In this document: in pieces, positions 14,395 to 45,679 of the stretch
Layout: each line of letters starts with the position of its first letter
Numbering within the stretch: the first letter of the stretch is position 1
DNA from: Candidatus Altimarinota bacterium
GTDB taxonomy: Bacteria; Patescibacteriota; Gracilibacteria; BD1-5; UBA2023
Direction: 5' to 3'
NCBI GenBank assembly: GCA_023230505.1
Contig: JALNXF010000004.1
Location: 1-64,000, forward strand
Length of the DNA: 64,000 nucleotides
Position numbers and translations under genes: made by a program
Notes under the pieces: generated by a model
What the model saw: the letters and a program-made list of their open reading frames with translations, nothing else
Database searches by the model: none
Told to the model about the DNA's origin: nothing

Positions 14395-14424
14395 ATGCGC
14401 AGTGAAACAAGTGCCCTTGGGGCA
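14395..14424 (+). repeat. SETSALG start-codon repeat, copy 1
   Basis: ATGCGCAGTGAAACAAGTGC followed by CCTTGGGGC, directly at the start of the lipoprotein gene. It contains a perfect 5-bp hairpin TGCCC-TTG-GGGCA. Other copies lie at 25528, 26568 (twice), 39740 (twice) and 45679 (minus). Confidence 0.85.
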
Positions 14425-15834
14425 AAAAAATTATTAATTATAACATTTTCTATTTTCTTGTTAATTTCTTGCGGAAAAACTGATGTAGTACAAAATAATA
14501 CTGAGACAAAAAATAACGAAGAGCCAGTTTCTATGACAAAAGAAGAGAAGGTTACACAACTCAAAAATAGATTAAATTTTAGATCTTTTATTACAAAGTG
14601 AGATTTTTATTCTATAAAAAATATGAAAGAAGTGGCGCTTAAATACTATTTGAGTGTTTATTTAAAACTAAAAGATGATATTTTATTGGAGAGAAAAATA
14701 GCTGATACTTATTTTGATTTAAAAAATTTCCCAAAGGCCTATGAGTATTATAAAAAAATACCAAAAATGGAAATTGATGAAAAATCAAAACAAAAAATGG
14801 CTTTAGCACTTACTTATTCAGAGAGTGAAATAGATAAAAAAAATGAATTATCTCAAATGCAATTATCAGCTTGAGATAGGGATTATTATAATATAGTTCT
14901 TGATTGTAACAGTTGAATTAAAGTATGTATCGGTGCCATAAAAGCTTATACTTGAACTTATGAAAAAACTACAAAACTTCAAACCTTACTTTATAATTTT
15001 GAAAAAACCTGAAATACAGACTCAAATTATAAATATGCACTTTTAGAATGACTTTTTATTGAAAATAAAGACTATCTTATTTGAGGTAAAATTTGAGAAG
15101 AAGTCTTGGCTAAAAGACCAGATTATAGATCTATTCTAAAATTAACTTGATACACATATTATGAGCTCGGTGATTATAAAAAAGCAAATAATTATTTACA
15201 AAAATATTATAATTTTGATCCAAAAGATGTAAAAACTACATATTTACTTTGAGTTATAAATTTTTATTTGGAAAACTATATTTCCTCAAATTTGTATTTT
15301 AATGCTGCAATTCTAAATTGATATACTCCAAAAATAGAACTAGAAAGAAGACTAGCTTATAATTATTATATTATTGGAGATAAGAAAAATATGTTTAAGG
15401 TTTACAGATATTTGCTTGATGAAAAATGAGTAGAGGAGGATGATTATAGTGTGGCTATTTTTACAGCAATAGAAGATAAGGAATCATCAAAATCTATGCT
15501 TTGGGCAAATAAATGAATTACAAAATTTCCTAATTCTTCTAATATGTATGCTTTTAGATGATGGATTTATAGGCTTAGGAATGAAACTGAAAATGCGCTA
15601 AAAGACCTAGAAAAATCACTTACTCTAAATCAACAAAATCCCGTTACACTTTATAATAAATGAATGATTTTCGAAGAAAGGCAGAATTATTTATTGGCAA
15701 AAAAATATTTTATGGATACAATAGAAAACGATAAAAACTGAACCTTTTGAAATCAAGCAGAAATTGAGCTAAAAAATATTGAAAATAAGGAAAAATTAAT
15801 GCAAAGCTGAAGCACTTTAGATGCTAATTGATAA
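14395..15834 (+). CDS. TPR-repeat lipoprotein with SETSALG start-repeat
   Basis: A 479-aa predicted lipoprotein. The first nine codons (MRSETSALG) are the start-codon repeat; then AKKLLIITFSIFLLISCG is a lysine-started signal peptide with lipobox LISC (Cys ~26). The rest is helical with TPR-like units (AYEYYKKIP, YYELGDYKKANNYLQKYYNF, YNKGMIFEERQNYLLAKKYF). TPR lipoproteins often organise outer-surface complexes; the role here is unknown. The natural start may once have been nearer the KKLL segment. The two last codons are TGA (Gly) then TAA. Confidence 0.8.
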
Positions 15835-15861
15835 TTGAAATAATAAATAATTTGCATTAAT

Positions 15862-15883
15862 ACATATTTTATATAATATATGT
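15862..15883. promoter_or_regulatory. possible operator/promoter of the RHH-MazF pair
   Basis: An AT-only inverted repeat ACATAT ... ATATGT overlaps a TATAAT hexamer (15872-15877) 25 bases upstream of the antitoxin ATG. RHH antitoxins normally bind such palindromes to repress their own operon; sequence support is modest because the whole leader is AT-rich. Confidence 0.4.
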
Positions 15884-15907
15884 AATATATTTTGTAATAT
15901 AAAAATT

Positions 15908-16144
15908 ATGGCAACTATAACAATCTCTACAAGATTATCAGAGGAATCAATTAAATTACTTGATAAACTTGCTAGAAAAAACCAAAAAACAAAATCAAAA
16001 ATAATAGAGGATTCTCTTAAAATATATTATGAAAATGAAATGAAAAAAAATATTATTTCATCATATTCTAATATTTGAAAAGATGATGAAAGTATAGAAT
16101 TAACAGAAACTTGAGTTAATGATTTTTTACTTTCTTATAATTAA
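15908..16144 (+). CDS. Ribbon-helix-helix antitoxin
   Basis: A 78-aa protein. The N-terminal ~45 residues (ATITISTRLSEESIKLLDKL then KNQKTKSKIIEDSLKIYYEN) fit a ribbon-helix-helix DNA-binding fold of the MetJ/CopG type; the C-terminal ~30 residues would bind the toxin. It ends three bases before the start of a MazF-like gene, the usual antitoxin-first order. Confidence 0.8.
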
Positions 16145-16147
16145 CAT

Positions 16148-16483
16148 ATGTATTCTCAATGAGATATTTATTTAGCAAATCTTAATCCGACTTTATGACA
16201 AGAACAATCTTGAATATGACCAGTTTTAATTGTTTCTGGAAATTCTTTTAATCAGAATAATAATATATTTATTGTTTGTCCAATTACATCAAAATTAAAA
16301 AAATATTATTGAGATTTAATTGTTAAACCAAATAAAACAAATTGACTATCTGAAATTTCTGAAATTTTAGGATTTCAAATAAGAACTTTATCTAAGGAAA
16401 GATTAATAAAAAAAATTTGAAATATAGAAAAATTTGAAGTAGATAATGTTTTAAATTGAATTAATATACTTTTAACACTTTAA
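16148..16483 (+). CDS. MazF/PemK-family mRNA interferase toxin
   Basis: A 111-aa MazF/PemK-like toxin. The family start is clear: QGDIYLANLNPTLGQEQSG with GPVLIVSGNSFNQ, followed by VCPITSK (the conserved PIT segment) and QIRTLSKERLIKKIG. MazF toxins cleave mRNA at short motifs. Arg/Thr residues of the active site are in the GIGPVLIVS and PITSK blocks. Paired with the preceding RHH antitoxin. Confidence 0.88.
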
Positions 16484-16486
16484 TTT

Positions 16487-17062
16487 ATGTCAGAAAAAAA
16501 GGATTATAGAGTTGAGAAAAAACCAGAAGTAAAAAATATTGAAGCTGGAATTTTGAAGGAAAAAGAAAAAAAAGATCTTGAGGATAAAATAGTTGATACT
16601 TTAAAAAAATTAAATTCAGGTCTTACAAAAAAAGAAATAATGTCACTTTTTAATAAAATTGAAGCCTCAAAATGACTTGATTGATTAAAAAAAGAACTTC
16701 AAAAGGAAATAAAAATTTGATGAAAAGAAATTCCAGAGGAAATCCTTAGGTCTATCCTAGATTTAATTAAAGAATCAAAGGAAATTACTCTTAAGTGAAT
16801 TGAAGAGTTGAAAATTGAGCTTGGAAAAGTGTTGAATGAATCAAAAGAATACGAAATAGATACTGAAGTTTATCTTAGCTCAAAATTTAAATTCATCAAA
16901 AAACTTGAGGAAAGTGAACTTTGAAAAAACATAATTCTTGATATTGCTGGAGTTACAGTTTGAGCTCTGGATTCAGCACAGGCCATATTTAAACTTCTTT
17001 TGTGATTGATAAAGGATTTACTTTTATTACCAAGAGATGTAGCGAGAAAAATTAAAAAATAA
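16487..17062 (+). CDS. Hypothetical helical protein
   Basis: A 191-aa protein that I do not recognise. It is lysine/glutamate-rich and mainly helical (residues 1-125) and has a hydrophobic stretch near the C-terminus (NIILDIAGVTVGALDSAQAI then FKLLLGLIKDLLLLP) that could be a membrane hairpin or amphipathic helix. It begins three bases after the MazF stop, so it may be co-transcribed with the toxin-antitoxin pair, but nothing shows a functional link. Confidence 0.6.
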
Positions 17063-17084
17063 ATTAATTTCTAATTTAATAAAA

Positions 17085-18266
17085 ATGAGTGATAACACAA
17101 TTATTTGTCCAAAATGTGCGACAGTTATAAATCTTGATGAAATGCAAGCAAAGAAATACAAGGAGCAACTTGAATTAAATGAACAAAAACTAAAAGCAGA
17201 TTTTGCAAAACGTGAGGAAGAAATTAAAAAAGAAATGTGGACAAAAGCCCTAAAAGCAGCTGAAGAAAAGAAAGAGCTTGAGACAAAAGATCTTACAATT
17301 CAATTGGAAGAATTTAAGAAAAAACAAGAAGAATCTATAAAAAATGAACTAGAGCTTCGTAAAAAAACTAGAGAATTAGAGGAAAAGGCAAAAAATCAAG
17401 AACTTGAAAACATTAAAAAATTAGATGAAGAAAGAAAGAAATTAGAAACAAAAATGTTAGAAGAATCTAAGAAAAAGGAAGAAGAAATTCTTAAAAAAAT
17501 TCAAGAAGATTTTTCAAAACAATTAGCAGAAAAGGATAAACAAGCCGAAATTCTAAGAAAATCCTTAGAAGAAGCAAGGCAAAAATCAATTCAATGATCT
17601 CAACAAATTCAAGGTGAAATTCAAGAAAATGAATTAAAGGAAATTTTAACTAGAAATTTTCCACTTGATATTATTGAAGATGTACCAACTTGAATAAAAT
17701 GAGCTGATTTAATTCAAACAGTTAGAAATGAAAGATGACAAAATATCTGAGTGATTTTGTGGGAATCAAAGAATACAAAAACCTGGTCAGCCGATTGGAT
17801 AAAAAAACTAAAAGATGACAGAATTTTAGCAAAAGCAGATGTTTGTATTTTAATTTCAAATACGCTTCCAGATAATATTAAACATTTTGGATTAATAGGG
17901 GATGTTTGGGTGTCAGAATTTGCTTATTTTCTAGCACTTACTGTCGCGGTTAGAGATAAATTACTATCACTTCATCAAGTCTCAAAATCACTCGTTTGAA
18001 AAGAGGAAAAAATGGAGCAACTTTATTCTTACCTTTCAAGTTCAGAATTCAAATCAAAAATAGAAAATATAATTGATGCATTTAAATCAATGAAAGAAGA
18101 TTTGGATAGCGAAAAAAGATCTATGGCACGCATTTGGGGAAAAAGAGAAAAAGAACTTGAGCGTATTATCAATAATACAAGCTTCCTCTATGGTGATATG
18201 CAAGGCATTATGTGAGCAAGTCTTGGAAAAATAAATTATCTAGAACTTGATAGTGGAGAAAAATAA
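17085..18266 (+). CDS. DUF2130 coiled-coil protein
   Basis: A 393-aa protein of the DUF2130 family. It starts with a CPKC motif (residues 8-11, probable half zinc ribbon), has a long charged coiled coil (~25-180), and then the conserved DUF2130 nuclease-like region: DVPTGIKGADLIQTVRN, ILWESKNTKTWSADWIKKLK with the E-S-K core of a PD-(D/E)xK-like fold, and the C-terminal QGIMGASLGKINYLEL. DUF2130 proteins are thought to be DNA-associated; function is not established. A typical promoter for the next gene starts at its stop codon. Confidence 0.85.
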
Positions 18267-18268
18267 AT

Positions 18269-18296
18269 TTGACAAATAAAAATTATATACCATAAT
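18269..18296 (+). promoter_or_regulatory. promoter of the 82-aa gene
   Basis: Consensus TTGACA at 18269-18274, 16 bases, then CATAAT at 18291-18296, 42 bases before the ATG. One of the best sigma-70 type promoters in the window. Confidence 0.65.
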
Positions 18297-18337
18297 CTGC
18301 GGGCAAAGGAAAATTTTTAATTTTTAACTAAATAAAT

Positions 18338-18586
18338 ATGGCAATACAAGCAATGTGAGTAAATTCTATGAATCAAACTCTAACTCAAACTTGAGGTGGT
18401 ACTCAAACAGAAGCACCAAAAAAAACTGAAACACCAACAGAATGAGTAAAGCAAGTTGATTGAATTACGGGAGTTAAGACTATGACTAAAAAAGCGGTTG
18501 CTGCTATCTGAAATTCTGAAGATGCTTCAAGAACTGAGAGAAATAAAGCTGAAAAAAAATGAGAAAATGTTTCAGTTATGGCATAA
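18338..18586 (+). CDS. Hypothetical small protein (82 aa)
   Basis: A soluble 82-aa protein rich in Thr, Gln, Gly and Lys (GVNSMNQTLTQTGGGTQTEA), predicted to be largely disordered. No family recognised. It has its own strong promoter and a strong terminator, so it is a monocistronic and possibly abundant product. Several glycines are TGA. Confidence 0.6.
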
Positions 18587-18599
18587 TCTTGATTTTATA

Positions 18600-18640
18600 A
18601 AAAAGAGTTTTTCTGAAAATTTTCAGAAAAACTCTTTTTT
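18600..18640 (+). terminator. rho-independent terminator, perfect palindrome
   Basis: A perfect inverted repeat with 20-base arms (18600-18619 and 18620-18639) with core TTTTCTGAAAATTTTCAGAAAA, shown here by its arms CTGAAAA/TTTTCAG, ending in T6. It lies 13 bases after the small gene. Confidence 0.85.
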
Positions 18641-18673
18641 AGTTAGAGATTTTTTTAAAATAATTTTCATTTT

Positions 18674-18703
18674 TTGGGATTTTTGATATATTAGATTTAT
18701 AAT
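18674..18703 (+). promoter_or_regulatory. probable promoter of the DedA gene
   Basis: TTGGGA (18674-18679), 18-base spacer, TATAAT (18698-18703), 10 bases before the ATG at 18714. The very short leader suggests a near-leaderless transcript. Confidence 0.5.
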
Positions 18704-18713
18704 CAAAAAATTT

Positions 18714-19487
18714 ATGAAAAAACACAGTAAAATTGTCGAATTTTTATTGCAAATATTGAATTTTATATTTGCAGGAATTACTATAGCTCTTGTTATAATC
18801 TGACTTTTTAGACCAGATCTTGTTGAATTATTTATAACATGGGTTTGAACCAAGATTTTATTGCTTTGAAATTTAAACTATATTATAGCTTTTGGTAGTA
18901 GTATTATTGAATCGTTCCCAGTTTTGGGAGTCGTAATTCCAGGTCAACAAATTATGTTGATGGTTTGATGATTTTTCTGAAAAAATAATTTAGTATTTGT
19001 TATAATAGTTGCCATAGCTTGAGCTTTAATTTGAAACTATATTTGATATTTTCTTTGAGTGAGATACTGAGAAGTTTTCTTAAAAAAATACTGAGATTGG
19101 TTTTGATTATGAAGAACAGAGCTTAGAATCTTAAAAAAACAAATAGAAAAAAATGGAGCTTACTTTATAATTTTTTGAAAATTTCATAATTTCACTCGTG
19201 CGTTTGTTCCATTTATAGCCTGATCTATGTGAATGAAAAAACATCATTTCTGGCTTTTCAATATTATCGGATCAATACTTTGGGCTTTTAGTATAATACT
19301 GCTTTGAGTAGTTTTTGTAAGTTTTTATGCTCATATACTCAAATATCTGCCTTATGTTTTAATTTGAATTTTAGTATTAACAGCTCTTTATATTTATTTC
19401 TTCAAAAGAGAGAGTTTTATACAATATTTAAAAGATAAAAATGAAGAAATAGAAGAGAAAATTAATGAAAAAAAGAAAATAATTTAA
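18714..19487 (+). CDS. DedA-family membrane protein
   Basis: A 257-aa DedA/SNARE-associated (VTT-domain) protein, a family with undecaprenyl-phosphate and phospholipid flippase members. Features: ESFPVLGVVIPGQQIMLMVG near residues 65-85 (the conserved E..P..PGe region), AGALIGNYIGYFLGVRYGE, then KYGDWFGLGRTELRIL and FGKFHNFTRAFVPFIAGSMG (the conserved F.R..P..AG motif). About five or six membrane segments. Next to a WecA/MraY-type transferase, which would use the same lipid carrier. Confidence 0.9.
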
Positions 19488-19500
19488 TAACCTTTTTTAT

Positions 19501-20619
19501 ATGAATTTTTTTGATACATGAGTTTTTATAAAATTTTTATTTTTAATTTGAGCTTCTGTTTTTAGTTCTGCTATTTTAACAGTATTTTTTATTTTTCTAT
19601 TTAGAAAACTTAATTTCCTAGATCATCCTGAGAGATATCCTCATGAATGAAAAAGAGCTCCCATTCCTTATGGAATGTGAATAGCATTATTTACGAATTT
19701 TTTATTGCTTTCATCTCTTTTTCTAGATTTATCATTAAAAAAATTAGTTATTATTTTAATTCTTGGATTTATAATTTTATTTATTAGCTTTATTGATGAT
19801 CTAGACACTATTTCAGTTACAAAAATAAAAATTCCGCCAATTTTAAGGCTTATACTTCAAATTTGAGTTTGAGCATTTATTTGAATTACAAGTATAAAAA
19901 TTTGATATATAAGCAATATTTTTTGATGAGTAATACATTTAGACAATTATTTTTTACAACTCGGACTTTATAAAATATATATAATTCCTTTGTTTTTTAC
20001 AATTGCGTGGTATGTTGTTGTTTTTAATTCGCTTAATTGGAGTGATGCCTTGCCAGGCCTTACTTCTTGATTATCATTTATTTCGATGATAATTATGGCT
20101 ATTTTAACAGTTAAATTATATATTACTGATACCTCTTTTTTATCAAAAGAAAATTCTGAATTTGTACTTCTTAATTTAGCCATTTTCTTACCATCAGTCT
20201 TTTTATTTTGGATTTTTGATTTAAAAAGAATGTTTTTAATAGGTGATTCCGGAACTATGTTTTTAGCCTTTATTATTGCTACTCTAGCTATAATTTCTGG
20301 TTGAAAAATAGCCACAGTTGCAACAGTTTTGGGAGTCTATGTAATAGATGCATTTTATGTTATTTTTGCTCGCCTTTATAACAAAAAAAATCCACTTAAA
20401 TGAGATATGACACATCATCTTCATTTTAGACTTAGAAAGTTATGATTTAGTGATGAATTTATTAGAAATCTAGTTTATTCTCTTTCTTTTCTTTTCTGAA
20501 TTTGAGCAATTTTTCTTGATAAAGCTTGAAAATTAATTTTATTTTCTATACTAGTTGTAATTGTTATTTTTATTACAAAAATACTCAATGCTAAAACTAT
20601 TCTTAAAAATGAGAAATAA
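19501..20619 (+). CDS. WecA/MraY-like glycosyl-1-phosphate transferase (GT4 membrane type)
   Basis: A 372-aa polytopic membrane enzyme of the MraY/WecA/TagO family, which moves a sugar-1-phosphate to undecaprenyl phosphate. The usual motifs are there: PERYPHEGKRAPIPYGMGIA (K-R-x-P-x-x-G), the metal-binding IDDLD, GDSGTMFLAF, and the C-terminal histidines THHLHFRL. The normally invariant DGxDGL is changed to SDALPGL (in FNSLNWSDALPGLTSG): the first Asp stays and the second is Pro. About ten membrane helices. Starts 13 bases after the DedA gene and overlaps the next gene by 11 bases. Confidence 0.88.
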
Positions 20620-21307
20620 TAATTGATTTACATTAATTGAGCTTTTAATTGTTGTTACAATTATTGCTATTATGTGAACATTTTCTTTTCTTTCTTTTGG
20701 GAATTTTTTTGATAAATATGAATATGGCTCTTATCAGAAAAGAATTGATAATTATCTGGATATTGAGGATTTTAATATCAAAAATAACGTAAATAGTAGC
20801 TATGAAATAACTTTTTTATCTGGAAGTCCTGGATATACTGTTAGTAAGAATTTTTTTAAGCCAACAAATTTTGTTAAATTAGATAATTTTGATTTTGCCT
20901 CTTTGTCATGAACTTTTACAACAAGTGCTATTTGAGATATATATTATAATAATGATTATTGAAATTGACGTATTATTACTGCCTATTTTTCTGGGTCAAG
21001 TAATATAATTTCACTTAAGGAAGATTATAATTGAAGCAGTAAAATTAATATATTATTTACACTTAATTGAGTTAATTTAAATAATTATGACATAGTTTTT
21101 TTTGAATCAGATATTTTAAGAGGCGACACAATTACATCAATTTCTTCGCTTTCTGGGGCTAACTTGTATGACAAAGTAACTTACAGTAATATTTTATGAA
21201 AAAAAGAAATAAAATGATTTTGGGGAGCTAATTCTTGAAGTATAAATGAGGTTTATATAAATCTTGAAAAATGATCTAAGGAAATTCCAATAAAATTAAC
21301 CAAGTAA
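20609..21307 (+). CDS. Type IV pilin-like protein
   Basis: A 232-aa protein with a class III signal/prepilin N-terminus: MRNNNGFTLIELLIVVTIIA, the prepilin peptidase site being after NNG (Gly encoded by TGA) before F(+1) with E at +5. The rest is a beta-rich, Ser/Asn/Tyr-rich ectodomain without cysteines that I do not recognise. It could be a minor pilin or a surface pseudopilin. It overlaps the preceding transferase gene by 11 bases and is followed by fmt after one base. Confidence 0.85.
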
Positions 21308-21308
21308 T

Positions 21309-22298: not shown

Positions 22299-22341
22299 TA
22301 ATATATTTTTCAAATGTTTGGTTGTAATTTTTAATTTTTAA

Positions 22342-22403: not shown

Positions 22404-22420
22404 ATTTTTTAACTAAATTT

Positions 22421-25322: not shown

Positions 25323-25630
25323 TTTAGTATTAATTAATAAATAATTTTTTTGGAGTAATTTATATTTTACTTTAATTAAAAATGATTTTCGTATGTTCAT
25401 CTCATATTTTAGTTCTTTCTATGGCTTAGTTACTTAATTCTAAAAATTTTTCTACTCGTTTTGTTCTAAATAAATTTAATTATTTATTAAATCTAGTATA
25501 TATTTTCTAAAAAATAGTCAAATATTTATGTGCAGCGAAACAAGTGCCCTTGGGTAAAAAATCTTAGATTAAAAAGTACAAAAAACTATTAAATTCTCTT
25601 TTTCGTAACTTTTGAATTAAATATAAAGAG
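25323..25630. other. Non-coding stretch holding the orphan SETSALG repeat
   Basis: No convincing gene. 25490-25560 resembles the promoter and first codons of the gene at 26568 (both have AGTATATA ... AATCAAATATTTATG-like leader and the start repeat). The rest is AT-rich with no hairpin of note. Confidence 0.6.
25528..25555 (+). repeat. SETSALG start-codon repeat, orphan copy
   Basis: ATGTGCAGCGAAACAAGTGC then CCTTGGGTAA: the reading is MCSETSALG followed at once by TAA. The peptide frame has no gene behind it, so this copy is decayed or remains after loss of its host gene. Confidence 0.85.
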
Positions 25631-26567: not shown

Positions 26568-26625
26568 ATGTGCAGTGAAACAAATGCTCTTGGGGTGTGC
26601 AGTGAAACAAGTACTCTTGGGGTAA
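26568..26625 (+). repeat. SETSALG start-codon repeat, tandem copies 2 and 3
   Basis: Two adjoining copies (26568-26595 and ~26596-26625), coding MCSETNALGV and CSETSTLGV in the same frame, directly on the ATG. The second copy repeats the GTGCAGTGAAACAAGT core, so one insertion landed at the edge of another or arose by slippage. Confidence 0.85.
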
Positions 26626-27665
26626 AAAAACTTAAACTAATATTAGTTTCATTTTTCCTTCTACTTTCCTCATGTTCCAATGAATATATCGCTTTTCATA
26701 GTCAAAATAATGCTTATTTGGAGAGTAAAACTAGTGTTTCACAGCAAGTTGAAAAATATGATATTTCAAAAATTTGAGAGAGGGATGTGGAATTGTTTTC
26801 GCTTCCGGATAAGAAGTGAGTCGATAAAATAGTTAATTTTATAGATAATGCCAAAAAGCGAATTTATTTGGAAGTTTATATTTTGACGGAAAAAAGGATA
26901 ATTGAGGCTTTGGTAAAAGCAAAGAGTAGATGAGTAGATATTAGGATAATTTTAGAGAAAAATGTATTTTGATCTCCAAAAATTAATGATAAGGCAATGC
27001 AAACTCTGCTTTGAGCTGGAATTTCGGCCATTTACTCAAGTGAAGATAATTATACATTTACTCATTCAAAATTTTATATAATTGACGATTTTTTCTTGGT
27101 TTCTACGGGAAATATGAGTCATTCCACATTTGTTACTAATAAGGAATTTTTTGTAAAATCAGATAATATTCCTGATTTAAAACTTCTTGAGAAACTTTTT
27201 TTAGATGATTTTAATTATAAAAAATCAATAATTTGTGATTATAATTTAATGAGTTCTCCTAATTGTTCTCGTGAAGTGATAAGAAATTTATTAAAATCAG
27301 CCAAATCCTCAATTTATATTTACAATCAAGAAATAAGTGATGAGCAAATTTTATCTATTTTAAGAGAACAAAAGAAAAAATGATTAGATATTAAATTAAT
27401 TATTTGAGATATAAACAAAGTTAAGAAAAATAATCAAATTTCAAAAGATTTAAAAAATCTTGGAATTGAAGTAATTTCTCCAAAAAAACCTTATATTCAC
27501 GCTAAATTGGTTTTAATTGATACTAGTTATATTTACGTTTGAAGCGTTAATTTTACCACTAATTCTTTTGATAACAATAGGGAAGTTTGAGTTATTTTTA
27601 AAAGTGAGAAAACTTGATGAGAAATAAAAAAAGAGTTTTTGAAAGACTTTTCAAATTTACAATAA
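26568..27665 (+). CDS. Phospholipase D-like lipoprotein with double SETSALG start repeat
   Basis: A 365-aa lipoprotein with two PLD (HKD-type) motifs: HSKFYIIDDFFLVSTGNMSH (~aa 165-185) and HAKLVLIDTSYIYVGSVNFT (~aa 310-330). Residues 1-18 are two tandem copies of the start repeat (MCSETNALGVCSETSTLG), then VKKLKLILVSFFLLLSSCS is the signal peptide with lipobox LSSC. Family members are phosphodiesterases, transferases and nucleases (Nuc-like); substrate unknown. Signal peptide plus double HKD motif suggests a surface-anchored nuclease or phospholipase. Confidence 0.85.
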
Positions 27666-37235: not shown

Positions 37236-37241
37236 AAAAAT

Positions 37242-38024
37242 ATGAGATTTAAATTACAAAATATTGCATTGGGTTTTTTTATAAAATCTAAAAAAGAAAA
37301 CCCCTCTCTTATTACAGAAAAATGATTTTTTGATATAGATTGAAAAGCGATTTCATATTCTCCTAATGACACTATTGTCTCTTGACTTAGAGAATTAGTA
37401 TATCCTTTTATTAAAGCACTTAACTTTGATTCAACAAGTTGAACTTTTAATAATAATCAAATTTCATTAGAAAATTTAAATAAAATAAAGGTTTTAAATA
37501 AAATATTATTCAAAACCCTAGAGCGTCTTGCCTTTAAAGAGAATAATTGAAAAATTGAAATAACTAAAATTAATATAGCTAATAGAATATTAACTATTAT
37601 GAACGATAGTACTTTTTTATTAGAAATTAATCAAGATATGATAGATAATGTTATTTCTTGGCTTCATACTTTATGAAAAAATAATCCATGATTATTAACT
37701 AAACAGGAATTAAATGAGCTTGAAAAATTTTATAACTGAGAAAAATTAGAATCTATAGAGTTTTGAATTGTTGATGAATTATATATGAAAAATAGGCTTA
37801 ATTTAGCTAAAAAAGAAAATAATATCACTCTTCATGAATGAAGAAATTGATTATGATTATTAAAAAGATGATTTTGAGTAAGAAATTTTAAAGCAGAAGT
37901 TTGAAATATTTTATTAAATACTGACTTAACCTGAGAAATTGAAATCACAGAAAAACATCCTTCATTTTTTGTAAGCACATCCCCTAGATTAACAGAAGAA
38001 GCCGTAGATATTATTTTAAACTAA
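37242..38024 (+). CDS. Hypothetical protein (260 aa)
   Basis: Starts six bases after pheS. Soluble, mixed alpha/beta, no signal peptide; the centre (EKFYNGEKLESIEFGIVDELY then MKNRLNLAKKENN) is helical. I do not recognise the family. UGA-Gly density is high (about 11), so it is clearly coding. Confidence 0.65.
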
Positions 38025-38075
38025 AAAAACTTTTGCTTTTTTCAAAAAATCTATAAAATAAGCACACCTTTTTGG

Positions 38076-38097
38076 GAGACATTTTATTTTGTCGCTC
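38076..38097 (+). promoter_or_regulatory. leader hairpin before rplA
   Basis: GAGACA (38076-38081) and TGTCGCTC (38090-38097) can pair in the 101-base leader of rplA. L1 often represses its own mRNA through such a rRNA-like leader; the match is suggestive only. Confidence 0.35.
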
Positions 38098-38125
38098 GAA
38101 CCAATATTTTTTAAAATAATTTTTT

Positions 38126-38809
38126 ATGCAAAAAAGAGGAAAGAAATATAGACAAGCAATTACCCTTATTGAAAAGGATAAAGCTTATACTATTGATGAA
38201 GCTGTTGAGCTTCTAGAGAGAACTAATACAGTAAAATTTGACCCTACTGTTGAAATACATTTTAATCTTGGAATAGATCCAAAATATAGTGATCAAATGA
38301 TTAGATCGACTGTTACTCTGCCAAATGGATCTGGAAAATCAGTTAGAATTTGAGCTTTTGATGATAGTGGAAACGAAAAAGCACTACTTGCTGCTGGAGC
38401 ATCTGTTGCTGGATGAGAAGATTTACTTGATATAGTGGCTTCTGGTAAAATAGAATTTGATGTAGCTATTGCTACTCCTGCGATGATGAGAAAAATGTGA
38501 AAAGTTGCAAAAGTACTATGACCAAAAGGTCTTATGCCAAATCCAAAAGCGGGAACTGTTTGAGATGATTTACTTGCAATAATCAAGGAATTAATAGCTT
38601 GAAAATTTGAATTTAAAAATGACAAACAATGAAATGTTCACTCAATTATCTGAAAATTATCATTTTGAAGTGATAAATTAAAAGAAAATTTAGTACATTT
38701 CATCAAAGTACTTAAAGATGTAAAACCAGCTTGAGTAAAATGAAATTTCATAAACACTGTTTATGTATGTAATGCAATGTGACCTGGAATAAAATTAGAC
38801 GTTAAATAA
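38126..38809 (+). CDS. rplA: 50S ribosomal protein L1
   Basis: L1 (227 aa), of the L1 stalk, which moves E-site tRNA. Seen: GKKYRQAITLIEKDKAYTID, PTVEIHFNLGIDPKYSDQMI, TVTLPNGSGKSVRI, KVLGPKGLMPNPKAGTVGDD and KPAGVKGNFINTVYVCNAMG. Full length. rplK is not adjacent. It is followed by a terminator. Confidence 0.97.
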
Positions 38810-38831
38810 AAACTAATTAAATAATTAAGCC

Positions 38832-38867
38832 AAATAAATCCAACTGTATAGTTGGATTTATTTTTTT
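38832..38867 (+). terminator. rho-independent terminator after rplA
   Basis: 14-bp stem AAATAAATCCAACT / AGTTGGATTTATTT around GTAT, then T-run. Confidence 0.9.
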
Positions 38868-38961
38868 ATTTTGAAAATATCATTTTTTTGATATAATGAA
38901 CAAACCCTTAAAATTCTTTTCAAACAAAAATAAATATCAAAATAAAAAGAGGTGAAGTAGA

Positions 38962-39594
38962 ATGAAGAAAATGGTAGTTCTCGGATATCTTTTGAGCAGT
39001 TTAATTTTTGTGTTATTAATGCCATCTATTGGCTACAGTAACCAGGAGGCAAAGGATGTCTATGAACAAAAACCCACAAAAATAGAAACAGAAACAAATG
39101 TGCAATCTGATTTCCTAGAAATTTATTACACATATTTTTCCTCATCAAATCAAAATCAAGACAAAAATCAGGAGGATGTAAAAGACGCAAACGAGCGAGC
39201 AAAAATAAAAACCTTTTTGAAAAATAAAGAAGTTTTAAATTACGAATTTTATGGGGAATTAATTTGTAACTACTTTGATAACTGGGATGACAGAAAGCTT
39301 TTTGCTTCAATTTTGGTTATTGAGTCTCACGGTAAAACCAGAGCAAAAAGCAAAAAAGGAGCTCGAGGACCATGGCAAATTATGCCTTTTTGGAAGGCAG
39401 TTCTCAAAATCCCAGGATCTTTATATAATCCAGAAGTTAACATAAAGTATGCAGAAAAAGTCCTTGATATTCATACCTACGAAGCAAATGGTAAGTTATG
39501 GGGGCACAAAGGAGGACTTTATCGTTATTCTGGAAAATCCAAGCATTACGCCAAAAAAATACACAAACTTATGAATGAGATTGAAAAAGCCTGA
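38962..39594 (+). CDS. Exported lytic transglycosylase with standard-code gene structure
   Basis: A 210-aa SLT-type protein: signal peptide MKKMVVLGYLLSSLIFVLLM ending near GYS, then a charged linker, and the catalytic domain with LFASILVIESHGKTRAKSKK (Glu in VIES) and GARGPWQIMPFWKAV. It cleaves peptidoglycan. The gene is unlike the rest of the window: a real Shine-Dalgarno AGAGGTGA (38948-38955), every glycine GGN, TGG for Trp and a stop codon TGA (39592-39594), followed by a GC-rich terminator. In code 25 it would run on to TAA 39667-39669 (235 aa) right through the terminator hairpin. Confidence 0.9.
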   Translation: MKKMVVLGYLLSSLIFVLLMPSIGYSNQEAKDVYEQKPTKIETETNVQSDFLEIYYTYFSSSNQNQDKNQEDVKDANERAKIKTFLKNKEVLNYEFYGELICNYFDNWDDRKLFASILVIESHGKTRAKSKKGARGPWQIMPFWKAVLKIPGSLYNPEVNIKYAEKVLDIHTYEANGKLWGHKGGLYRYSGKSKHYAKKIHKLMNEIEKA

Positions 39595-39632
39595 CAACTT
39601 TTATTGATTTCAACACAAGTTTGCAGAAATAC

Positions 39633-39660
39633 AAAAAGAGCCCGCTCGCGGGCTCTTTTA
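39633..39660 (+). terminator. GC-rich rho-independent terminator
   Basis: AAAAAGAGCCCG / CGGGCTCTTTT around CTCG. Its composition contrasts with the AT-only terminators of the other genes, in line with a foreign origin of the transglycosylase unit. Confidence 0.92.
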
Positions 39661-39739
39661 ATTTTTTAATTGATATTCTATTATTTTTTATATAATAATT
39701 TTGTAAGACATATTTTTTATTTCTTTAATCCCATTTTTT

Positions 39740-39799
39740 ATGCGCAGTGAAACAAATACTCTTGGGGTACACAGTAAAACAAGTGCCCTTGGGGCGAAA
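39740..39799 (+). repeat. SETSALG start-codon repeat, tandem copies 4 and 5
   Basis: Copy 4 ATGCGCAGTGAAACAAATAC.TCTTGGGG; copy 5 TACACAGTAAAACAAGTGCC.CTTGGGGCG. Frame is kept into the transporter gene. Copy 5 keeps the TGCCC/GGGC hairpin; copy 4 has lost it. Confidence 0.85.
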
Positions 39800-40933
39800 A
39801 ATCAAGAAAAAAATATTTTTTTAATTAAGGAGGAATACTTGAGTTTCCTGATTAAACTTATAATCACTGTTGCTTTCTGATTATCGCTCTGGTTTTTGTA
39901 TGAAATATGAGGAATACTAAAAATTTTATTTTTATGAGTTTTTTTGAATTTACTTTTTACTCCATTTCTCGATAAAACCAAAAAATATAAAATCCCAGAT
40001 TGGCTTGGAATTCTGCTTATTTATCTAGTTATTTTAATACTCGTAACTGTATTTTTATTTGTACTTATCCCAATTTTTACCGAGCAAATCTGAAAAATGA
40101 GTGTTCGTTTGTTTGACTATATTGGCTTTCTGCAGGACTCATACAAGACCTGATGAATTAGAGCCTTGTGAATTCCAGATTTCCTATTAAATTATCTAGA
40201 TTGATTCTTAGACAAAGTAGATTTTAATTCATTATTTGACTTCCTCAAAAATAATTTGGGCGAAATTTCGAAATTTTTTGGTAAAAATATTGGCTTATTT
40301 TTGACAAATTCGAGCTGATTTATATTTTCTCTCACTGGAAGTTTATTTAATTTTGTCCTAATTTTTGTTTTCTCATTTTTTATATGAATCGAGAGGAAAA
40401 AAATCAAAAAATTCAGTTATGACATACTACCCGAAAATATCTCAAAATACCTAAAATCAAGAGAAGACAAAATTATCTCAAATATGCATTTCTGGCTTAG
40501 ATGACAACTAATTCTATCTTTCTCAATATTTGTCCTCACCCTCCTCTGACTAAACATCGCCAGACTTTTTTGAATAAATTTCAGCTTCTGAGAAACCTTC
40601 GCCCTAGCCCTAATCTGAGCCATGATGGAATTTATCCCCTACATCTGACCCTTCATCTCAATCCTCCCAGCCCTAGCCATCGGAGCCACATTCTGACTCC
40701 AAAAAATTCTAGCCATCATCCTTATCTACATCATCATCCAACAATCCGAAGAAAAAGTCCTAGTTCCCCTAGTTATGAGCAAATCCCTAGACCTTTCGCC
40801 TTTGGTCGTTCTCCTCTGAATGATGATTTGAGCCAGCCTTTTCGGAATCCTCTGAATCATCATCGCCGTGCCAATTGTCTCACTTCTCCAAATTTTTGTG
40901 GGGGATTTTGTGAAGTGGAAGAAGGGGAAGTAA
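39740..40933 (+). CDS. AI-2E-family transporter with double SETSALG start repeat
   Basis: A 397-aa polytopic membrane protein of the AI-2E/PerM family (autoinducer or unknown-substrate exporters). The C-terminus has GETFALALIGAMMEFIPYIG, PFISILPALAIGATFGL, then EEKVLVPLVMSKSLDLSPLV and the final GIIIAVPIVSLLQIF, all typical. The first 19 codons are two tandem start repeats (MRSETNTLGV, HSKTSALGA). An older start could be TTG 39839, which follows an AAGGAGG (39827-39833). Confidence 0.88.
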
Positions 40934-40956
40934 AATTAAAATAATTAACTTAAAAT

Positions 40957-41715
40957 ATGCATTTTCTAGATTTAGATTTAGTAAAAAATTATAAAAGTAA
41001 TTCTCAGAAAGCCAGAGTTATGACAGAATTTTGGACTGGGGAAAATATTTTTTGTCCGAGTTGTTGAGATTCAATTTCTCATTACGACAATAATAAACCT
41101 GTTGCGGATTTTTTCTGTAAAGGTTGCAAAGAAGATTATGAGCTAAAATCTGGAACTTCACTTGGAAATAAAATTACAGATTGAGCTTATTCTACAATGA
41201 TTGAAAGATTGTGAAGCGATAATAATCCAAATTTCTTCTTTCTAAATTATAAAAAAAGTTATGAAATAAATAATTTTGTCGTAATCCCAAAACATTATTT
41301 TACATCTGAAATTATAGAAAAAAGAAAACCTCTACCAATTACAGCCAGAAGAGCCGGATGGATTGGATGCAATATTTTGCTCTCACCAATCCCAGAAAGT
41401 GGCAAAATTTTTTATATTAAAAATTGAGAACAAAGAAATAAAAAAGAAATATTGCAAAATTGGAATAAAACACTATTCTTAAGAGACAAAAAATCACCAG
41501 ATTCTAAAGGTTGGATTCTTGACATAATGAAATGTATCGAAATGCTCCACAAACAAGAATTTACCCTCCAAGAAATGTACAATTTCGAACCAACTCTAAA
41601 ACTAAAATATCCCAACAACAATTTTATCAAAGATAAAATTAGACAACAACTCCAATTTCTGAGAGACAAAAGATATTTAAAGTTTGTGAGTAGTGGGAAG
41701 TATAGAGTTTTGTAA
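40957..41715 (+). CDS. dpnI: DpnI-family methyl-dependent restriction endonuclease
   Basis: A 252-aa relative of DpnI of Streptococcus, which cuts DNA at GATC when adenine is methylated. The match runs over the full length: FLDLDLVKNYKSNSQKARVM, zinc finger CPSCGD...CKGC, PVADFFCK, the catalytic EDYELKSGTS (PD-(D/E)xK type), DNNPNFFFLNYKK, ITARRAGWIGCNILLS, and the C-terminal winged helix ending KDKIRQQLQFLRDKRYLKFV. Glycines use TGA, so it is adapted to the host. No Dam-like methylase is near. 23 bases behind the AI-2E gene. Confidence 0.95.
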
Positions 41716-41739
41716 ATTTTATTTTTTTAATTTTTTTTT

Positions 41740-42921
41740 ATGTTACCTATTAGAAATTTAATAAAAATTAATCAATGACCGAATTTTTTATTTATCTTTT
41801 CTTTAAAAGCAAAGGACTTTCTATTTTTTTCCAAAATAGAAAGATCTCGTGAGTGAGAGAAAAATATTAAGAATAAAAAAGGATTTCAAAGAAAATTAGA
41901 TTTAAAAAGAGTTTCCAGAATAAGAGATTATTTATTAAGTGATAATTCTTATATTCCTACAAATTTTATTGTAAATATATGCACAGAAGATCATAATGAT
42001 GTTGATTTTAAATCAAAAGCTAAAATTACTAATAATTCTTTAATTGAGTTAAATTCTGAAAATGATTTATTAGTAATTGATTGACAGCATCGATTAGCAG
42101 CACTAGATTATATTAACTATAATTCTGAACTAAATTGATCTTGAATTAGATTTAAGGAATTATCTAATAAAGATAGAGAAAAATTAGATAATTATGAAGT
42201 TATAATAACTTGATATTTAAATATTTCAAGAATTGAGATGGCCAAGGTTTTTATAACAATAAATAATAATCAAAAAAAAGTAAATAAATCAGTTATTTTT
42301 GATTTATTACATATTTCTTGAAAAGATATTGATAATCTAGACCAAGAAACTGAGGAAATCTTGATGGCATGATTAACATTAGAACAAATTAAGGCAACTT
42401 CAATTATAGAAGAATTATATGAAAACAATAAAAGTTATTGGTATAATGCTGTTAATTATGAATGAGGTAGATTAAAAACAATTGAGCTTTGAAGTTTTGT
42501 AGAGCATTTATCATTAGCTTTATGAAAATATAGATTTTTAAATAATGAGAATTTCATTTATCATGAAAGAAGAGTTGAAACTATAGATTTATTTTATAAA
42601 AAATTGATTGATTCAATTTTTCAAGAAAAAAAAGAGGGTGATGTACTTATATCAAAATATGATCAATTTATCGATAAAAATTGTATTTTATCAAAAGCAA
42701 GTTGAGTTTGAATAATATTCAATAAAGATATATTTGATAAAGTATTAGAACTTTCTCTAGACGGGGATATAATTAACGAAAAGTATTTAGAAAAAATCTT
42801 TTTAAATTTTAATGAAAATGATTTCTTATCAACAAATCCTGAATATAAGTGAAAATTATCATCTAAAGCATGATATTCAGAAATCATCAAAATTTTAAGT
42901 AATAAAATAAAATTATGATAG
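41740..42921 (+). CDS. DGQHR-domain protein, DndB-like
   Basis: A 393-aa protein with the DGQHR motif (LLVIDGQHRLAALDYINYN, ~aa 108-126), the hallmark of the DndB/DGQHR family linked to DNA phosphorothioation and 7-deazaguanine DNA-modification systems. ITINNNQKKVNKSVIFDLL follows as in the family. It lies 24 bases after dpnI and its last codons overlap the next gene by 7 bases. DndB represses or recruits the Dnd system; no Dnd enzymes are next to it here. Confidence 0.85.
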
Positions 42922-43862
42922 ATTTTACAATATTTAATACTGCAAATCTAATTAAGCATTATAGGAATGATAATATTTTCCCTTCTGTAAGTAGATTGTG
43001 AACAATAAAATACTTAAAGCGTGAATCATTAAATACACATCAAAAAATAAATAAAGGCTTTGGTCCATTATTAAATCCGACATCATTTAATACTGATTCA
43101 TATTTAAAATTATCATTAAACTATTCTATACAAAGCCTTATAAAATGAATCATGTTTTATATATATTCAGAATTGACAGATATTTCTGTTAAAGATAATT
43201 TAAGTATAAAATTTTTAAATCTATATTATGCTCATGTATTTTTATCTTATTCAATATTACAATTCAATTGAATTAATATTGATTTCGAAAAAGATTCAAC
43301 TGTAGTGTATGATAAATATTTTATTTTAATAAAATATTTAAATATATCTAGTAATTCTTTAGAAATATTTAAAACTTCAAAAAATGAAAAGAAGAAAGAT
43401 ATTAATCATAAAAATTTTTGGGATATATATTATTGAATTATTAAAGATAATAAAAATGATTTCTTTATTGATTTAATACCAGGCTGACAAAATTATTTTC
43501 AAGAAAATAATTTTTTAAATAAAAAAAATGAAAGTGAATGTAGAAACTTCTATACATATAATTATTCATCTATTTATTCTTGGGAAAATAAAATAAGAAA
43601 TCCGTTATTTATTGAAACTATTAAAATTTGAAATAATTATAATTCAAATAGCTTAATTCAAAGAACGGATTTTAATAAGATAAAAACAACAGTTGAAAAG
43701 GAAATGATTTATATTATGGGGTTATTAAAAAAACTTTCATATAAGAAAGATTTCTCCGAGGAATTATTAAGTATGTTTAAAAATCCAAAATTAAAGTTAA
43801 ATAAAGATAAAATATTAAGTTGAATAGATGATTTTATTTATAATCTAGACAAAATTTTATAA
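42915..43862 (+). CDS. Unknown partner of the DGQHR protein
   Basis: A 315-aa, Asn/Ile/Lys-rich protein that I do not recognise. It is mainly helical, and has no membrane helix except a weak hydrophobic stretch (IKGIMFYIYSELT). The start ATG overlaps the DGQHR gene by 7 bases (ATGATAG), so translation is coupled and the two products likely work together. Confidence 0.65.
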
Positions 43863-43927
43863 AATAAACTTGCATTTTCACAAAAAATCGTTAGATCATG
43901 ATCGTTTATATTCTAACAATTTTTTTT

Positions 43928-44275
43928 ATGAAAACTATAATTTTGGACTTTACTGATTGAAAGGTAAAAATACTTAAACATAAGCAAATGCAGATTGAAG
44001 AAGTGGAAGATTTAATGTTTGAGAAATATGATTTAAGCCCAAATAATATTCAATGGATGACAGTGAATGATTTAATATTTGAATATTTAGGAGAGAAAGA
44101 AATATGAAAAGCCATATTTTCTATTGATAAAAATGAGATTAATGATTTTGCATGAAAAAAATTATCAAAAAGAGAATTAATAGAGATATTTTCATTTATT
44201 GAAAATGATGAGTGAATTTGGAATGCTATTGAAAAATCAAAAAAAGAAGCTTTAAATTATATTTCTAAAAAATAA
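43928..44275 (+). CDS. Hypothetical acidic protein (115 aa)
   Basis: Starts at ATG 43928 after a leader with a small hairpin (GTTAGA...TCTAAC then T-run). Acidic, helical (LFEYLGEKEIGKAIFSIDKN), no family recognised. It is separated by 65 bases from the unknown partner and may have its own promoter (ATAAACTTGC motif upstream). Confidence 0.5.
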
Positions 44276-44302
44276 TTCTTTTATTCATCTTCCAAAAATA
44301 AC

Positions 44303-45679
44303 CTAACCCACCAATTCCCCCCTCAAATCATCCACACTCCCAGCTCAGAGAAGCACTATGACGCTCGAGTTGGGATTTTTTTGGTCGTATTCCTTAATTA
44401 ATTCCAGAGTATTTTCGAGTCCGTTTCAGTTAATTGTATTTGGATAATTTTGTTTTAGTTCTGACACAAACCTGTCTGTTGTCATAAATTCGACATCTTC
44501 TTTTTTGTCGCGCGAGAAGTAGATATCGGGGATAATGAGTGAATCTGCGCTATTGAATGATGTCTTGAAGCCGTCGAGAAGTTCGATGGTTCTGGAGTAT
44601 TGGTGGGGTTGGAAGATAACAAAAATTTGTTTGTCGTGGTATTTTTGTTTGATTGATTCGAGTGTTAGTTTGATTTCTGTCGGATGATGTCAGTAATCAG
44701 ACATTACGAGATTTCCGGATTTTGTAGTTCAGACAATTTCAGATCTTCTCCAAATACCGGTGTAAGAGTTTATTTTTGAGATTATGTGCTGGTCGTCTAG
44801 TCCGAGTAATTTCGCCACTGTATAGGCTAATTTTGCGTCAAATTCGATGTGGTCTCCGGGGATTTGCAAGTTAAATTCTGGGAAATAAATTTTTTCAGAG
44901 TCGAGATTTTCAAAATATTTATCGTATACAAAAATTTGTAATTTTCAGATACTCCTTAGTGCGAGACAATTTGGGTCATTTCAATTTAGGATAATATAGC
45001 CTGATGTTTGGCTTTGTAAAGACTTGTATGCGTCTATATAATCATCTAAATCTCTGTAGTAATCCAGGTGATCTATTTCGATATTTGTGATAACCGTGAT
45101 AAATGGCAAGTATTTCAGAAAAGACCTCTTGTACTCGCAGGCCTCTATGACAAAATAATCTCCAGCTCAAAAATACAAATTAGAATTATTAAATTGCTTC
45201 ACTGGAGCCCCGACAAGTACTGAAGCATCTGTAGTTCCTCCAGCTAAAATCACTCACAAAATCGAGGTAGTTGTGGATTTTCCGTGAGTTCAGGCTACAG
45301 CGATACATTTTTTCTTATTTACAACTTCCGCAAGAGCTTCTGGATAGCTGAGACTTTTAATATTTAGCTTTATCGCTTTGGCAAGCTCTGGGTTAGCATT
45401 TAGATTTTCCTGCTTACTCAAATCTGGTTTTGTAATAATAGCTTCGCTATAAACTACCAAATCAATATCATCTGATAAATTCTCTTCTTTATGCCCGAAA
45501 AATACTTTCACTCATTCCGCTTCCAGAGTATCCGTGATAAAAGTGGGTTTTCCACCGTCAGATCAGGATACCTCGTATCACAACTTTCTATAATATCTAG
45601 CCAGAGCTGAAACTCCGACTCATCAGATTCCTATAAAAAAGATTTTTCCCGCCCCAAGGGCACTTGTTTCACTACACAT
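44303..45679 (-). CDS. murC: UDP-N-acetylmuramate-alanine ligase with SETSALG start repeat
   Basis: MurC (458 aa) adds L-Ala to UDP-MurNAc in peptidoglycan synthesis. GKIFFIGIGGVGVSALARYY is the nucleotide-binding N-terminus, AVAGTHGKSTTTSILGVIL the P-loop, IEIDHLDYYRDL the central domain motif, and YGHHPTEIKLTLESIKQKY plus FQPHQYSRT the C-terminal domain. The first nine codons are MCSETSALG, so the repeat replaces or extends the natural start, which would be about the GKIFF segment. It lies 3 bases downstream of a membrane gene on the same strand. Confidence 0.95.
45650..45679 (-). repeat. SETSALG start-codon repeat, copy 6
   Basis: On the minus strand: ATGTGTAGTGAAACAAGTGC then CCTTGGGGCG, at the murC start, in frame. 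It again keeps the CCC-TTG-GGG core. The upstream gene stops three bases before. Confidence 0.85.

What the first reader, a model, noticed from the sequence alone, without database searches (positions are those of the whole stretch)
14395..45679. A short repeat that inserts exactly on start codons: SETSALG
Seven copies of a ~28-base sequence (ATG-T/C-GC-AGTGAAACAAGTGC-CCTTGGGG) were found at 14395, 25528, 26568 (two), 39740 (two) and 45650-45679 (minus). Wherever a gene follows, it is in frame and supplies the ATG, giving MxSETSALG in front of unrelated products: a lipoprotein, a PLD lipoprotein, a transporter and MurC. It always comes with the same T-rich upstream 'TTTATG'. A TGCCC-TTG-GGGCA hairpin lies inside. 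It could be a selfish element specialised for start codons, a translational regulator, or a targeting signal. Its occurrence in front of signal peptides and in a cytosolic enzyme argues against targeting.
Basis: partly seen in the sequence, partly recalled or inferred. Interest (0 to 1): 0.9.

Follow-up and report, generated by a model that had tools for sequence, protein, structure and literature searches.

The report
Tiny mobile repeat after start codons
A 27-base mobile DNA repeat, found nearly unchanged in unrelated bacteria, sits in some of them exactly between a gene's start codon and its second codon and so would add the same nine amino acids to unrelated proteins; what moves it, and how it finds start codons, is unknown.

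Summary
In detail: seven copies, chance expectation 0.01. The repeat is a 27-bp unit, codons CGC AGT GAA ACA AGT GCC CTT GGG GTR, inserted behind a G. In Gracilibacteria and Sulfurimonas-type genomes all 34 sites I class as this unit follow an ATG; 29 lead into a gene-length or still open frame. Untagged orthologues show an exact 9-codon insertion: lipoprotein M[RSETSALGA]KKLLII against MKKLLII, MurC M[CSETSALGA]GKIFFI against MGKIFFI, and 27 of 32 compared fmt genes untagged. So the gene, not the repeat, supplies the ATG. In five Clostridia genomes, mostly rumen, the same sequence sits in dispersed repeats, 0 of 28 units behind an ATG; copies of those repeats without it exist. A sister hairpin sharing the 3' half occurs in the same genomes, 12 of 16 units not behind an ATG. 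I read it as a REP-like, non-autonomous mobile element with a start-codon-compatible subfamily. No mobilising enzyme was found beside copies. An ATG motif plus selection, or a regulatory role, is not excluded. Paper searches for the sequence found nothing relevant.

The parts
14395..14397 (+). ATG of the host gene (TPR lipoprotein 14395-15834)
   Evidence: untagged orthologue P0122 starts MKKLLIITFSIFLLISCGK
14398..14424 (+). 27-bp unit, codes RSETSALGA
25531..25556 (+). single unit behind ATG 25528, one base short, stop after 9 codons; apparently part of a duplicated start region of the 26568 gene
26571..26597 (+). first of two tandem 27-bp units, codes CSETNALGV
26598..26624 (+). second tandem unit, codes CSETSTLGV; PLD-domain protein 26568-27665 follows
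39743..39769 (+). first of two tandem units, codes RSETNTLGV
39770..39796 (+). second tandem unit, codes HSKTSALGA; AI-2E family transporter 39740-40933 follows
45650..45676 (-). 27-bp unit, codes CSETSALGA, behind ATG 45679-45677 of murC (44303-45679, minus)
   Evidence: closest MurC relatives lack it

Best explanation
The repeat is a non-autonomous mobile element of REP-like size (27 bp). Shown by sequence: filled and empty sites differ by exactly 27 bp behind a G, with no other consistent change, and the unit can be present twice in tandem (re-insertion or duplication). It belongs to a family of small repeats with the 3' half AAGTGCCCTTGGGGT (or AAGTACTCTTGGGGT). The SETSALG unit differs from the sister hairpin CGCCCTGAAAGAAGT... 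at three bases, which removes the long stem, so in the fold its 5' half stays unpaired. Inferred: an unidentified enzyme acting in trans moves it. In AT-rich hosts it prefers ATG of gene starts. There it is tolerated because it is 9 open codons long, leaves the upstream region and start codon in place and keeps the frame, so the gene would be made with a 9-residue N-terminal tag. Copies then decay, mostly by G-to-A and C-to-T changes. Not shown: the enzyme, actual translation of the tag, and any benefit to the host.
For: Copies of four host repeat families without the unit match the flanks joined across exactly 27 bp. Exact 9-codon insertion against orthologues: lipoprotein, MurC, fmt. fmt was tagged in 5 of 32 rows of the tree; the fewest changes are 4, and well supported branches force at least 2. 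murC carries a variant tag RTETS[IV]LG in 2 of 120 listed relatives, both only 58-59% identical to the window MurC, while the 86-88% identical ones lack it. Same 27-mer in Clostridia, Gracilibacteria and Campylobacterota. All 34 sites of the unit outside the Clostridia follow an ATG; 29 of 34 lead into a gene-length or open frame, against 54 start ATGs and 98 intergenic ATGs in the window, P = 3e-9. Sister units in the same genomes. Folding contrast. Unrelated target genes.
Against: No mobilising enzyme is linked. Y1 transposase (PF01797) occurs in 8 of 14 carriers and 3 of 5 non-carriers searched, with no unit in the 19 Y1 loci of 1.9-3.3 kb; G011, with five start-codon copies, has none. Reverse transcriptases occur in 10 of 14 genomes (3 of 14 controls), with no unit in 16 RT loci. 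The Clostridia units show no start-codon preference (0 of 28), and 16 of those 28 lie in a repeat family with only a weak predicted hairpin, so 'insertion into hairpin loops' is not the rule either. Sister units also sit behind ATG in 4 of 16 cases, two of them inside one long open frame, so an ATG motif rather than a working start codon may be what is read. Two weak matches in Gracilibacteria genomes are not behind ATG (L280, L270). Two of the 34 sites were found by routes that favour starts: G759 by orthology to fmt (much decayed) and G765 with a pattern that contains ATG, though a pattern without ATG found no other there. Carriers are rare: of 242 and 288 genomes drawn from the class, 3 each had a match.
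Confidence: 0.65

Rival explanations
1. The element reads only a DNA motif, ATG (or RTR) followed by the cut, anywhere in an AT-rich genome. Purifying selection then removes most hits inside genes, so most survivors are at start codons, where an in-frame 9-codon insert does least harm.
For: Sister units are preceded by ATG in 4 of 16 and by RTR in 10 of 16 cases. Five of 34 SETSALG sites have an ATG but no long ORF behind it. Clostridia copies show only a G before the unit.
Against: Intergenic ATGs are more numerous than start ATGs in the window (98 against 54), yet 29 of 34 sites lead into genes or open frames (P = 3e-9; 3e-8 for 25 of 29 after dropping likely dependent sites). fmt needs more than one gain or loss on its tree, and murC carries two different tag variants in distant relatives.
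Confidence: 0.21
2. A domesticated cis-regulator. The unit is kept at start codons because its 3' mini-hairpin or early codons tune translation, and it spreads between genes because it is useful there.
For: The 3' hairpin is kept in 146 of 155 pair cells over 31 units; 7 of 5000 base-matched reshuffles break as few. The third base of the GGG codon, free at protein level, changed in 1 of 31 units (to GGT). Near-intact units stand at fmt in species whose fmt genes differ much.
Against: No shared function among target genes. Most fmt and MurC relatives examined lack the unit. Some units at starts are badly decayed (G759). The same unit lies away from start codons in Clostridia. The hairpin is not more stable than shuffles, and the GTACTC form may be inherited rather than independent, which inflates the pairing count.
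Confidence: 0.1
3. An inherited N-terminal peptide or localisation signal of a protein family.
For: In frame with the following ORF in the tagged genes.
Against: In front of signal peptides, transporters and cytosolic enzymes alike. Orthologues lack it. Also present away from gene starts in another phylum.
Confidence: 0.01
4. Assembly or library artefact.
For: Identical short sequence in MAGs from several studies.
Against: Copies carry their own substitutions, tandem units differ from each other, and placement is codon-exact in unrelated genes.
Confidence: 0.01

Closest known systems
REP elements (GTAG and CGTC superfamilies; GTAG class associated with RAYT tyrosine transposases), PMC3733652
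   Same: 20-40 bp, hairpin-forming, many copies, singles and inverted pairs (sister units in G712 and G662), sometimes inside ORFs, including at NH2 termini; the CGTC class also has no known dedicated transposase (passages read).
   Different: No conserved GTAG or CGTC tag; no Y1 transposase gene next to copies; codon-exact placement behind start codons is not described in the passages read.
Rickettsia palindromic elements (RPE)
   Same: Mobile palindromes inserted in frame in unrelated protein genes (passages in PMC10969869; PMC3733652, which also reports that R. [quoted passage not shown]
   Different: RPEs are about 150 bp and, as recalled, lie at various places in ORFs; this unit is 27 bp, in other phyla, and stands at the second-codon position in its AT-rich hosts.
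Enterobacterial RU small mobile sequences (PMC2759123)
   Same: Small mobile repeats fused in frame to ORFs, in the passages seen also at an N-terminus (YP_0349).
   Different: 103-168 bp (abstract), other sequence, no start-codon rule in the passages seen.
byp elements of fungal mitochondria (recalled, not looked up)
   Same: Short inserts in coding regions of similar length.
   Different: Those are, as recalled, bypassed in translation; here the insert is an open in-frame stretch and nothing suggests bypassing.

Membership tests
REP (GTAG/CGTC superfamilies) | terminal unpaired GTAG or CGTC tag | tested here: not met
   among 75 distinct units of the wider family a tag or its complement occurs near the 5' end in 1, near the 3' end in 3, inside in 7
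REP (GTAG/CGTC superfamilies) | 20-40 bp palindrome able to form a stem-loop | tested here: inconclusive
   two sister units fold at -17.7 (z -4.2) and -10.9 kcal/mol (z -1.8), the SETSALG unit at -6.1 (z 0.5)
REP (GTAG/CGTC superfamilies) | RAYT (Y1 transposase) gene flanked by the repeat (GTAG class only) | tested here: not met
   Y1 in 11 of 19 genomes (8 of 14 carriers), no unit in any of the 19 Y1 loci, only three partial matches with 4 mismatches
REP (GTAG/CGTC superfamilies) | many dispersed copies, often in inverted pairs | tested here: met
   28 matches in G001; inverted pairs of sister units in G712 and G662
Rickettsia palindromic elements | palindrome of about 150 bp with in-frame insertion in ORFs | tested here: not met
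   unit is 27 bp; in-frame insertion itself is met
MITE | terminal inverted repeats and target site duplication of a parent transposon | tested here: not met
   empty and filled sites differ by exactly 27 bp; at most a 2-bp GC duplication is possible in the Clostridia sites; no parent element seen in the loci held
Rfam RNA families | match above gathering score | tested here: not met
   0 matches in the window and in 12 loci
RT-borne element (retron, DGR, group II intron) | reverse transcriptase next to copies | tested here: not met
   16 RT loci, 116,865 bases: no unit, four partial matches with 3 mismatches

The most novel reading that the evidence does not exclude
A mobile sequence whose insertion machinery finds start codons as such, through translation initiation or the open mRNA at the start site, so that insertion passes through RNA or through DNA coupled to translation: a new class of targeting, with a 9-residue tag as by-product.
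Probability: 0.1. Interest if true: 0.95.

Novelty: new variant of a known kind. Interest (0 to 1): 0.77.

Why it matters
Codon-exact placement between codon 1 and codon 2 of unrelated genes is not described for REP or RPE elements in the passages read here. It is a natural experiment on how a genome can tag many proteins at the N-terminus without evident harm, it affects start-site annotation in code-25 bacteria, and it makes the question 'what moves REP-like repeats that have no transposase' testable, because fmt in Sulfurimonas-type species offers filled and empty alleles of one gene.

Tried and rejected
Y1/RAYT transposase as the mover: present in 8 of 14 carriers and 3 of 5 non-carriers, not found in carriers G002, G006, G007, G011, G013, G016, and never beside a unit; not supported. 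Reverse transcriptase: in 10 of 14 genomes (8 over the cut-off; controls 3 of 14, not matched for kinship); three were typed, with best PADLOC models RT_III-A, a general RT model with Cas1_IIIb second, and Drt9; no unit near any of 16 RT loci; not supported. Known RNA family: none. Footprint of a larger element with the two halves as its ends: in 49 non-redundant loci, half-units without the full unit gave 4 hits, two of them related units and two the same weak site. Phage or plasmid carriage: one 27-base match at 88.9%, E 0.2, in 50,697 phage records, no plasmid match, none in E. coli. The viral collection gave one contig with two true copies (L041); looser scans added L072, a GC-rich look-alike, and four codon coincidences in genes with the motif CETSAIG. 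Hits dropped: of the 40 genome contigs stretches, I set aside L006, L018, L020 and L028. In one search, of 15 genomes with a match among 121, 4 carry the unit (G007, G008, G651, G662), 2 the sister unit and 9 something else. In one search, of 3 genomes with a match among 379, G104 and G285 are not the unit. In one search the further 'empty' matches listed for AT-rich start sites have up to four mismatches in 24 and are not used. A protein search on the first 40 residues of the window lipoprotein found only itself and one untagged orthologue. A viral scan for the RTETS variant found nothing. Limits: no whole genome of the window's organism is held; the metagenome collection could not be scanned.
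Full report
OBSERVATION. The pattern AGTGAAACAAGTGCNCTTGG with up to three mismatches occurs seven times in the window; dinucleotide shuffles give 0.01. Copies stand in frame behind an ATG at 14395, 26568, 39740 and 45679 (minus), and 26568 and 39740 have two tandem 27-bp units. The genes behind them are a TPR protein with a lipoprotein-like signal, a PLD-domain protein, an AI-2E family transporter and a Mur ligase, the last named UDP-N-acetylmuramate--L-alanine ligase in named relatives. The frames are read with TGA as glycine (code 25). The fifth site, 25528, has an ATG, a unit one base short and a stop. Its upstream 75 bases resemble those of 26568 (55 of 79 aligned columns; none of 300 random window segments scored as high), so it looks like a duplicated, decayed start region.

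EXACT UNIT. The repeat does not bring the ATG. An orthologue of the 14395 lipoprotein from an 'uncultured bacterium (gcode 4)' (P0122, 76% identical over 73% of the first 40 residues) starts MKKLLIITFSIFLLISCGK, where the window has M[RSETSALGA]KKLLIITFSIFLLISCGK. The 86% identical MurC P0002 starts MGKIFFI, the window MurC M[CSETSALGA]GKIFFI; the 88% identical P0001 also lacks the tag. At DNA level 32 fmt starts were compared (the 30 loci returned, which had matches in 53 of 60 genomes, plus L009 and L125): 5 carry the unit, one of them much decayed, and 27 do not. The unit is best written as nine codons, CGC AGT GAA ACA AGT GCC CTT GGG GTR, placed behind a G.

OTHER HOSTS. One scan of 84,980 species genomes with AGYRAAACAARYRCYCTTGGG gave 40 stretches. 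By their flanks I set four aside. The rest come from five Clostridia MAGs (three titled Ruminococcus, one goat-rumen Clostridia, one Ruminococcaceae), two MAGs titled Gracilibacteria, one titled only 'uncultured bacterium' (G015, whose Y1 match reads through TGA) and four Campylobacterota MAGs (three Sulfurimonas, one Helicobacteraceae). In Ruminococcus RUG11404 (G001) there are 28 matches with up to three mismatches and none for the reversed pattern. Of 28 Clostridia units in the loci, none is behind an ATG; 16 lie in one dispersed repeat with only a weak predicted hairpin, 8 and 3 in two hairpin repeats, 1 elsewhere; 11 of 28 fall inside an open frame of at least 150 codons in some frame, so that they are non-coding is likely but not shown. 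Joining 12 bases of flank on either side across exactly 27 bp finds copies without the unit for four repeats: GGGAGCGCAG^GCTCTGCGCC, AGCACCGACCGA^GCCGACAGGCGAGA, CGGCGGCAA^GCTGCCG and, in a viral contig, GGGCCGATGTGG^GCATCGGCCC, with 0 to 4 mismatches in 24. The first, third and fourth fold as hairpins with the insertion at or in the loop. Because unit and target both begin with GC, a 2-bp duplication cannot be told from none. Filled copies of one repeat may have multiplied together, so these may be about four independent events.

START CODONS. In Gracilibacteria-type and Campylobacterota genomes I count 34 sites of the SETSALG unit: window 5, G003 12, G011 5, G015 3, G465 1, G765 1, and 7 in Campylobacterota (five fmt, one SerA, one MiaB/MtaB-like). 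All 34 follow an ATG. Five lead to a stopped or short ORF (25528; L081 54 aa, L083 17 aa, L085 24 aa, L109 13 aa); 29 lead into a longer ORF or one still open at the end of the stretch, L058 after only 38 aa. Not counted: sister-type units (below) and two weak non-ATG matches, L280 in G003 and L270 in G011. G759 was found by orthology and G765 with a pattern containing ATG, routes that favour starts. The target genes are unrelated. Of 16 tagged ORFs scanned, Pfam names ResIII/DEAD helicase, thioredoxin/DsbA-like, ABC transporter, Bro-N, pyridine nucleotide-disulphide oxidoreductase, EPSP synthase, two FemAB, T4SS pilin, Kazal, T2SSF, DsbD with HMA, D-3-phosphoglycerate dehydrogenase and radical SAM UPF0004; one gave only a match below its cut-off and one nothing. 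In the window, by my gene list, there are 54 start ATGs, 98 intergenic ATGs and 1,939 ATGs in all, both strands. If start and intergenic ATGs were equally open, 29 of 34 at starts has P = 3e-9, or 3e-8 for 25 of 29 after removing likely dependent sites. Carriers are rare: 3 of 379 genomes of the phylum had a match, one of them real, and 3 of 242 and 3 of 288 of the class.

RECURRENCE. On the fmt tree the five tagged genes need at least 4 gains or losses, 2 of them forced by well supported branches; 112-113 of 500 label shuffles were as low, so the tags are not clearly clustered. Nearly intact units in G008 and G662, whose fmt genes differ widely, argue for separate insertions or for conservation of the unit. 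In MurC, 2 of the 120 listed relatives (of 7,972 above threshold) start MRTETSILGV or MRTETSVLGA; the DNA of one variant, ATGCGCACTGAAACAAGTATCCTTGGGG, is in G765, its only match there.

WIDER FAMILY AND STRUCTURE. Searching the 3' half AAGTGCCCTTGGGGT with up to two mismatches in 12 of the genomes gave further units with another 5' half, CGCCC(T)GAAGGAAGTGCCC..., in G003, Sulfurimonas-type genomes and rumen G013 (34 matches there, 4 for the reversed pattern). Sixteen distinct sister units, from 13 genomes searched with up to three mismatches, were examined: 4 of 16 are preceded by ATG and 10 of 16 by RTR; two form an inverted pair inside one 417-codon open frame. Two sister consensus forms fold into closed hairpins (-17.7 and -10.9 kcal/mol); the SETSALG unit leaves its 5' half open and keeps only a 3' mini-hairpin (-6.1, no better than shuffles). 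That would keep an AUG before it accessible, a possible reason why this subfamily lives at starts. Over 31 units, 75 of 95 substitutions against the consensus are G-to-A or C-to-T, many change the amino acid, and the 3' arm GGG is seldom hit; 9 of 155 pair cells are broken against 18.7 (sd 3.3) in base-matched reshuffles, 7 of 5000 as low. The one-base-short 25528 row is counted there as substitutions, and shared ancestry of the GTACTC form makes the figure optimistic.

MECHANISM. Shown: exact 27-bp gain, several host groups, start-codon placement in AT-rich hosts, nine in-frame codons, tandem units. Inferred: movement in trans by an unknown enzyme, tolerance at starts, translation of the tag. 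Candidate enzymes were looked for and not linked: Y1 transposases in 8 of 14 carriers and 3 of 5 non-carriers, none beside a unit; reverse transcriptases in 10 of 14, none beside a unit, and three typed ones differ. The main rival, an ATG motif plus selection, is weakened by the 29-of-34 figure but not excluded, since sister units also follow RTR.

KNOWN SYSTEMS. [quoted passage not shown] Our family has no conserved GTAG or CGTC tag. Passages of PMC10969869 describe Rickettsia palindromic elements of about 150 bp inserted in frame. Passages of PMC2759123 describe enterobacterial RU repeats fused to ORFs. PMC12306157 was seen in passages only. Literal searches for the repeat, its complement, its 3' half and the peptide in 5.39 million open papers found none for the full strings and two papers on other subjects for short ones; the listings of topic searches (titles and abstract starts) showed nothing about start-codon insertion of such repeats. 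I therefore file it as REP-like in behaviour, not as a member of the GTAG or CGTC REP families.

Noticed in passing
window 16148-16483: PemK/MazF-like toxin gene (Pfam PF02452) shortly behind the first tagged gene.
   Followed up: no
window 46505-53686: A 2,393-codon open reading frame under code 25, by far the largest in the window.
   Followed up: no
L284 1500-1655 (genome G662): Two sister units in inverted orientation 128 bp apart, both behind ATG and both inside one 417-codon open frame.
   Followed up: partly
L281 (genome G712): Inverted pair of different sister units about 77 bp apart, like a REP dimer.
   Followed up: partly
L159 (genome G007:C62:37049-37563): A related unit GCGTGAGTGAGGAAGTCCCCTTGGGGT directly before what reads like the start of surE (my reading of KILVTNDDG), apparently having displaced the usual ATG.
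   Followed up: no
L015 6021-6794: In the tagged Sulfurimonas fmt the unit's TGA, read in another frame, is the stop codon of the upstream ORF, which looks like a glutamate 5-kinase (my reading).
   Followed up: no
genome G013 (L090, L102, L114, L129-L144): A rumen Ruminococcus MAG with some thirty matches to the 3' half, many in hairpin repeats like GTGCGCGCCCGAAGGAAGTGCCCTTGGGGTATGACCGCAC.
   Followed up: partly
L073-L076: Viral contigs with a coding motif CETSA(I/V)G that resembles the tag by coincidence of codons.
   Followed up: partly
L072 4518-4544: A GC-rich viral contig with GCGCCGCGAAGCAAGTGCCCTTGGGGT next to a further GCGCCGCGA, a possible distant relative or chance.
   Followed up: no
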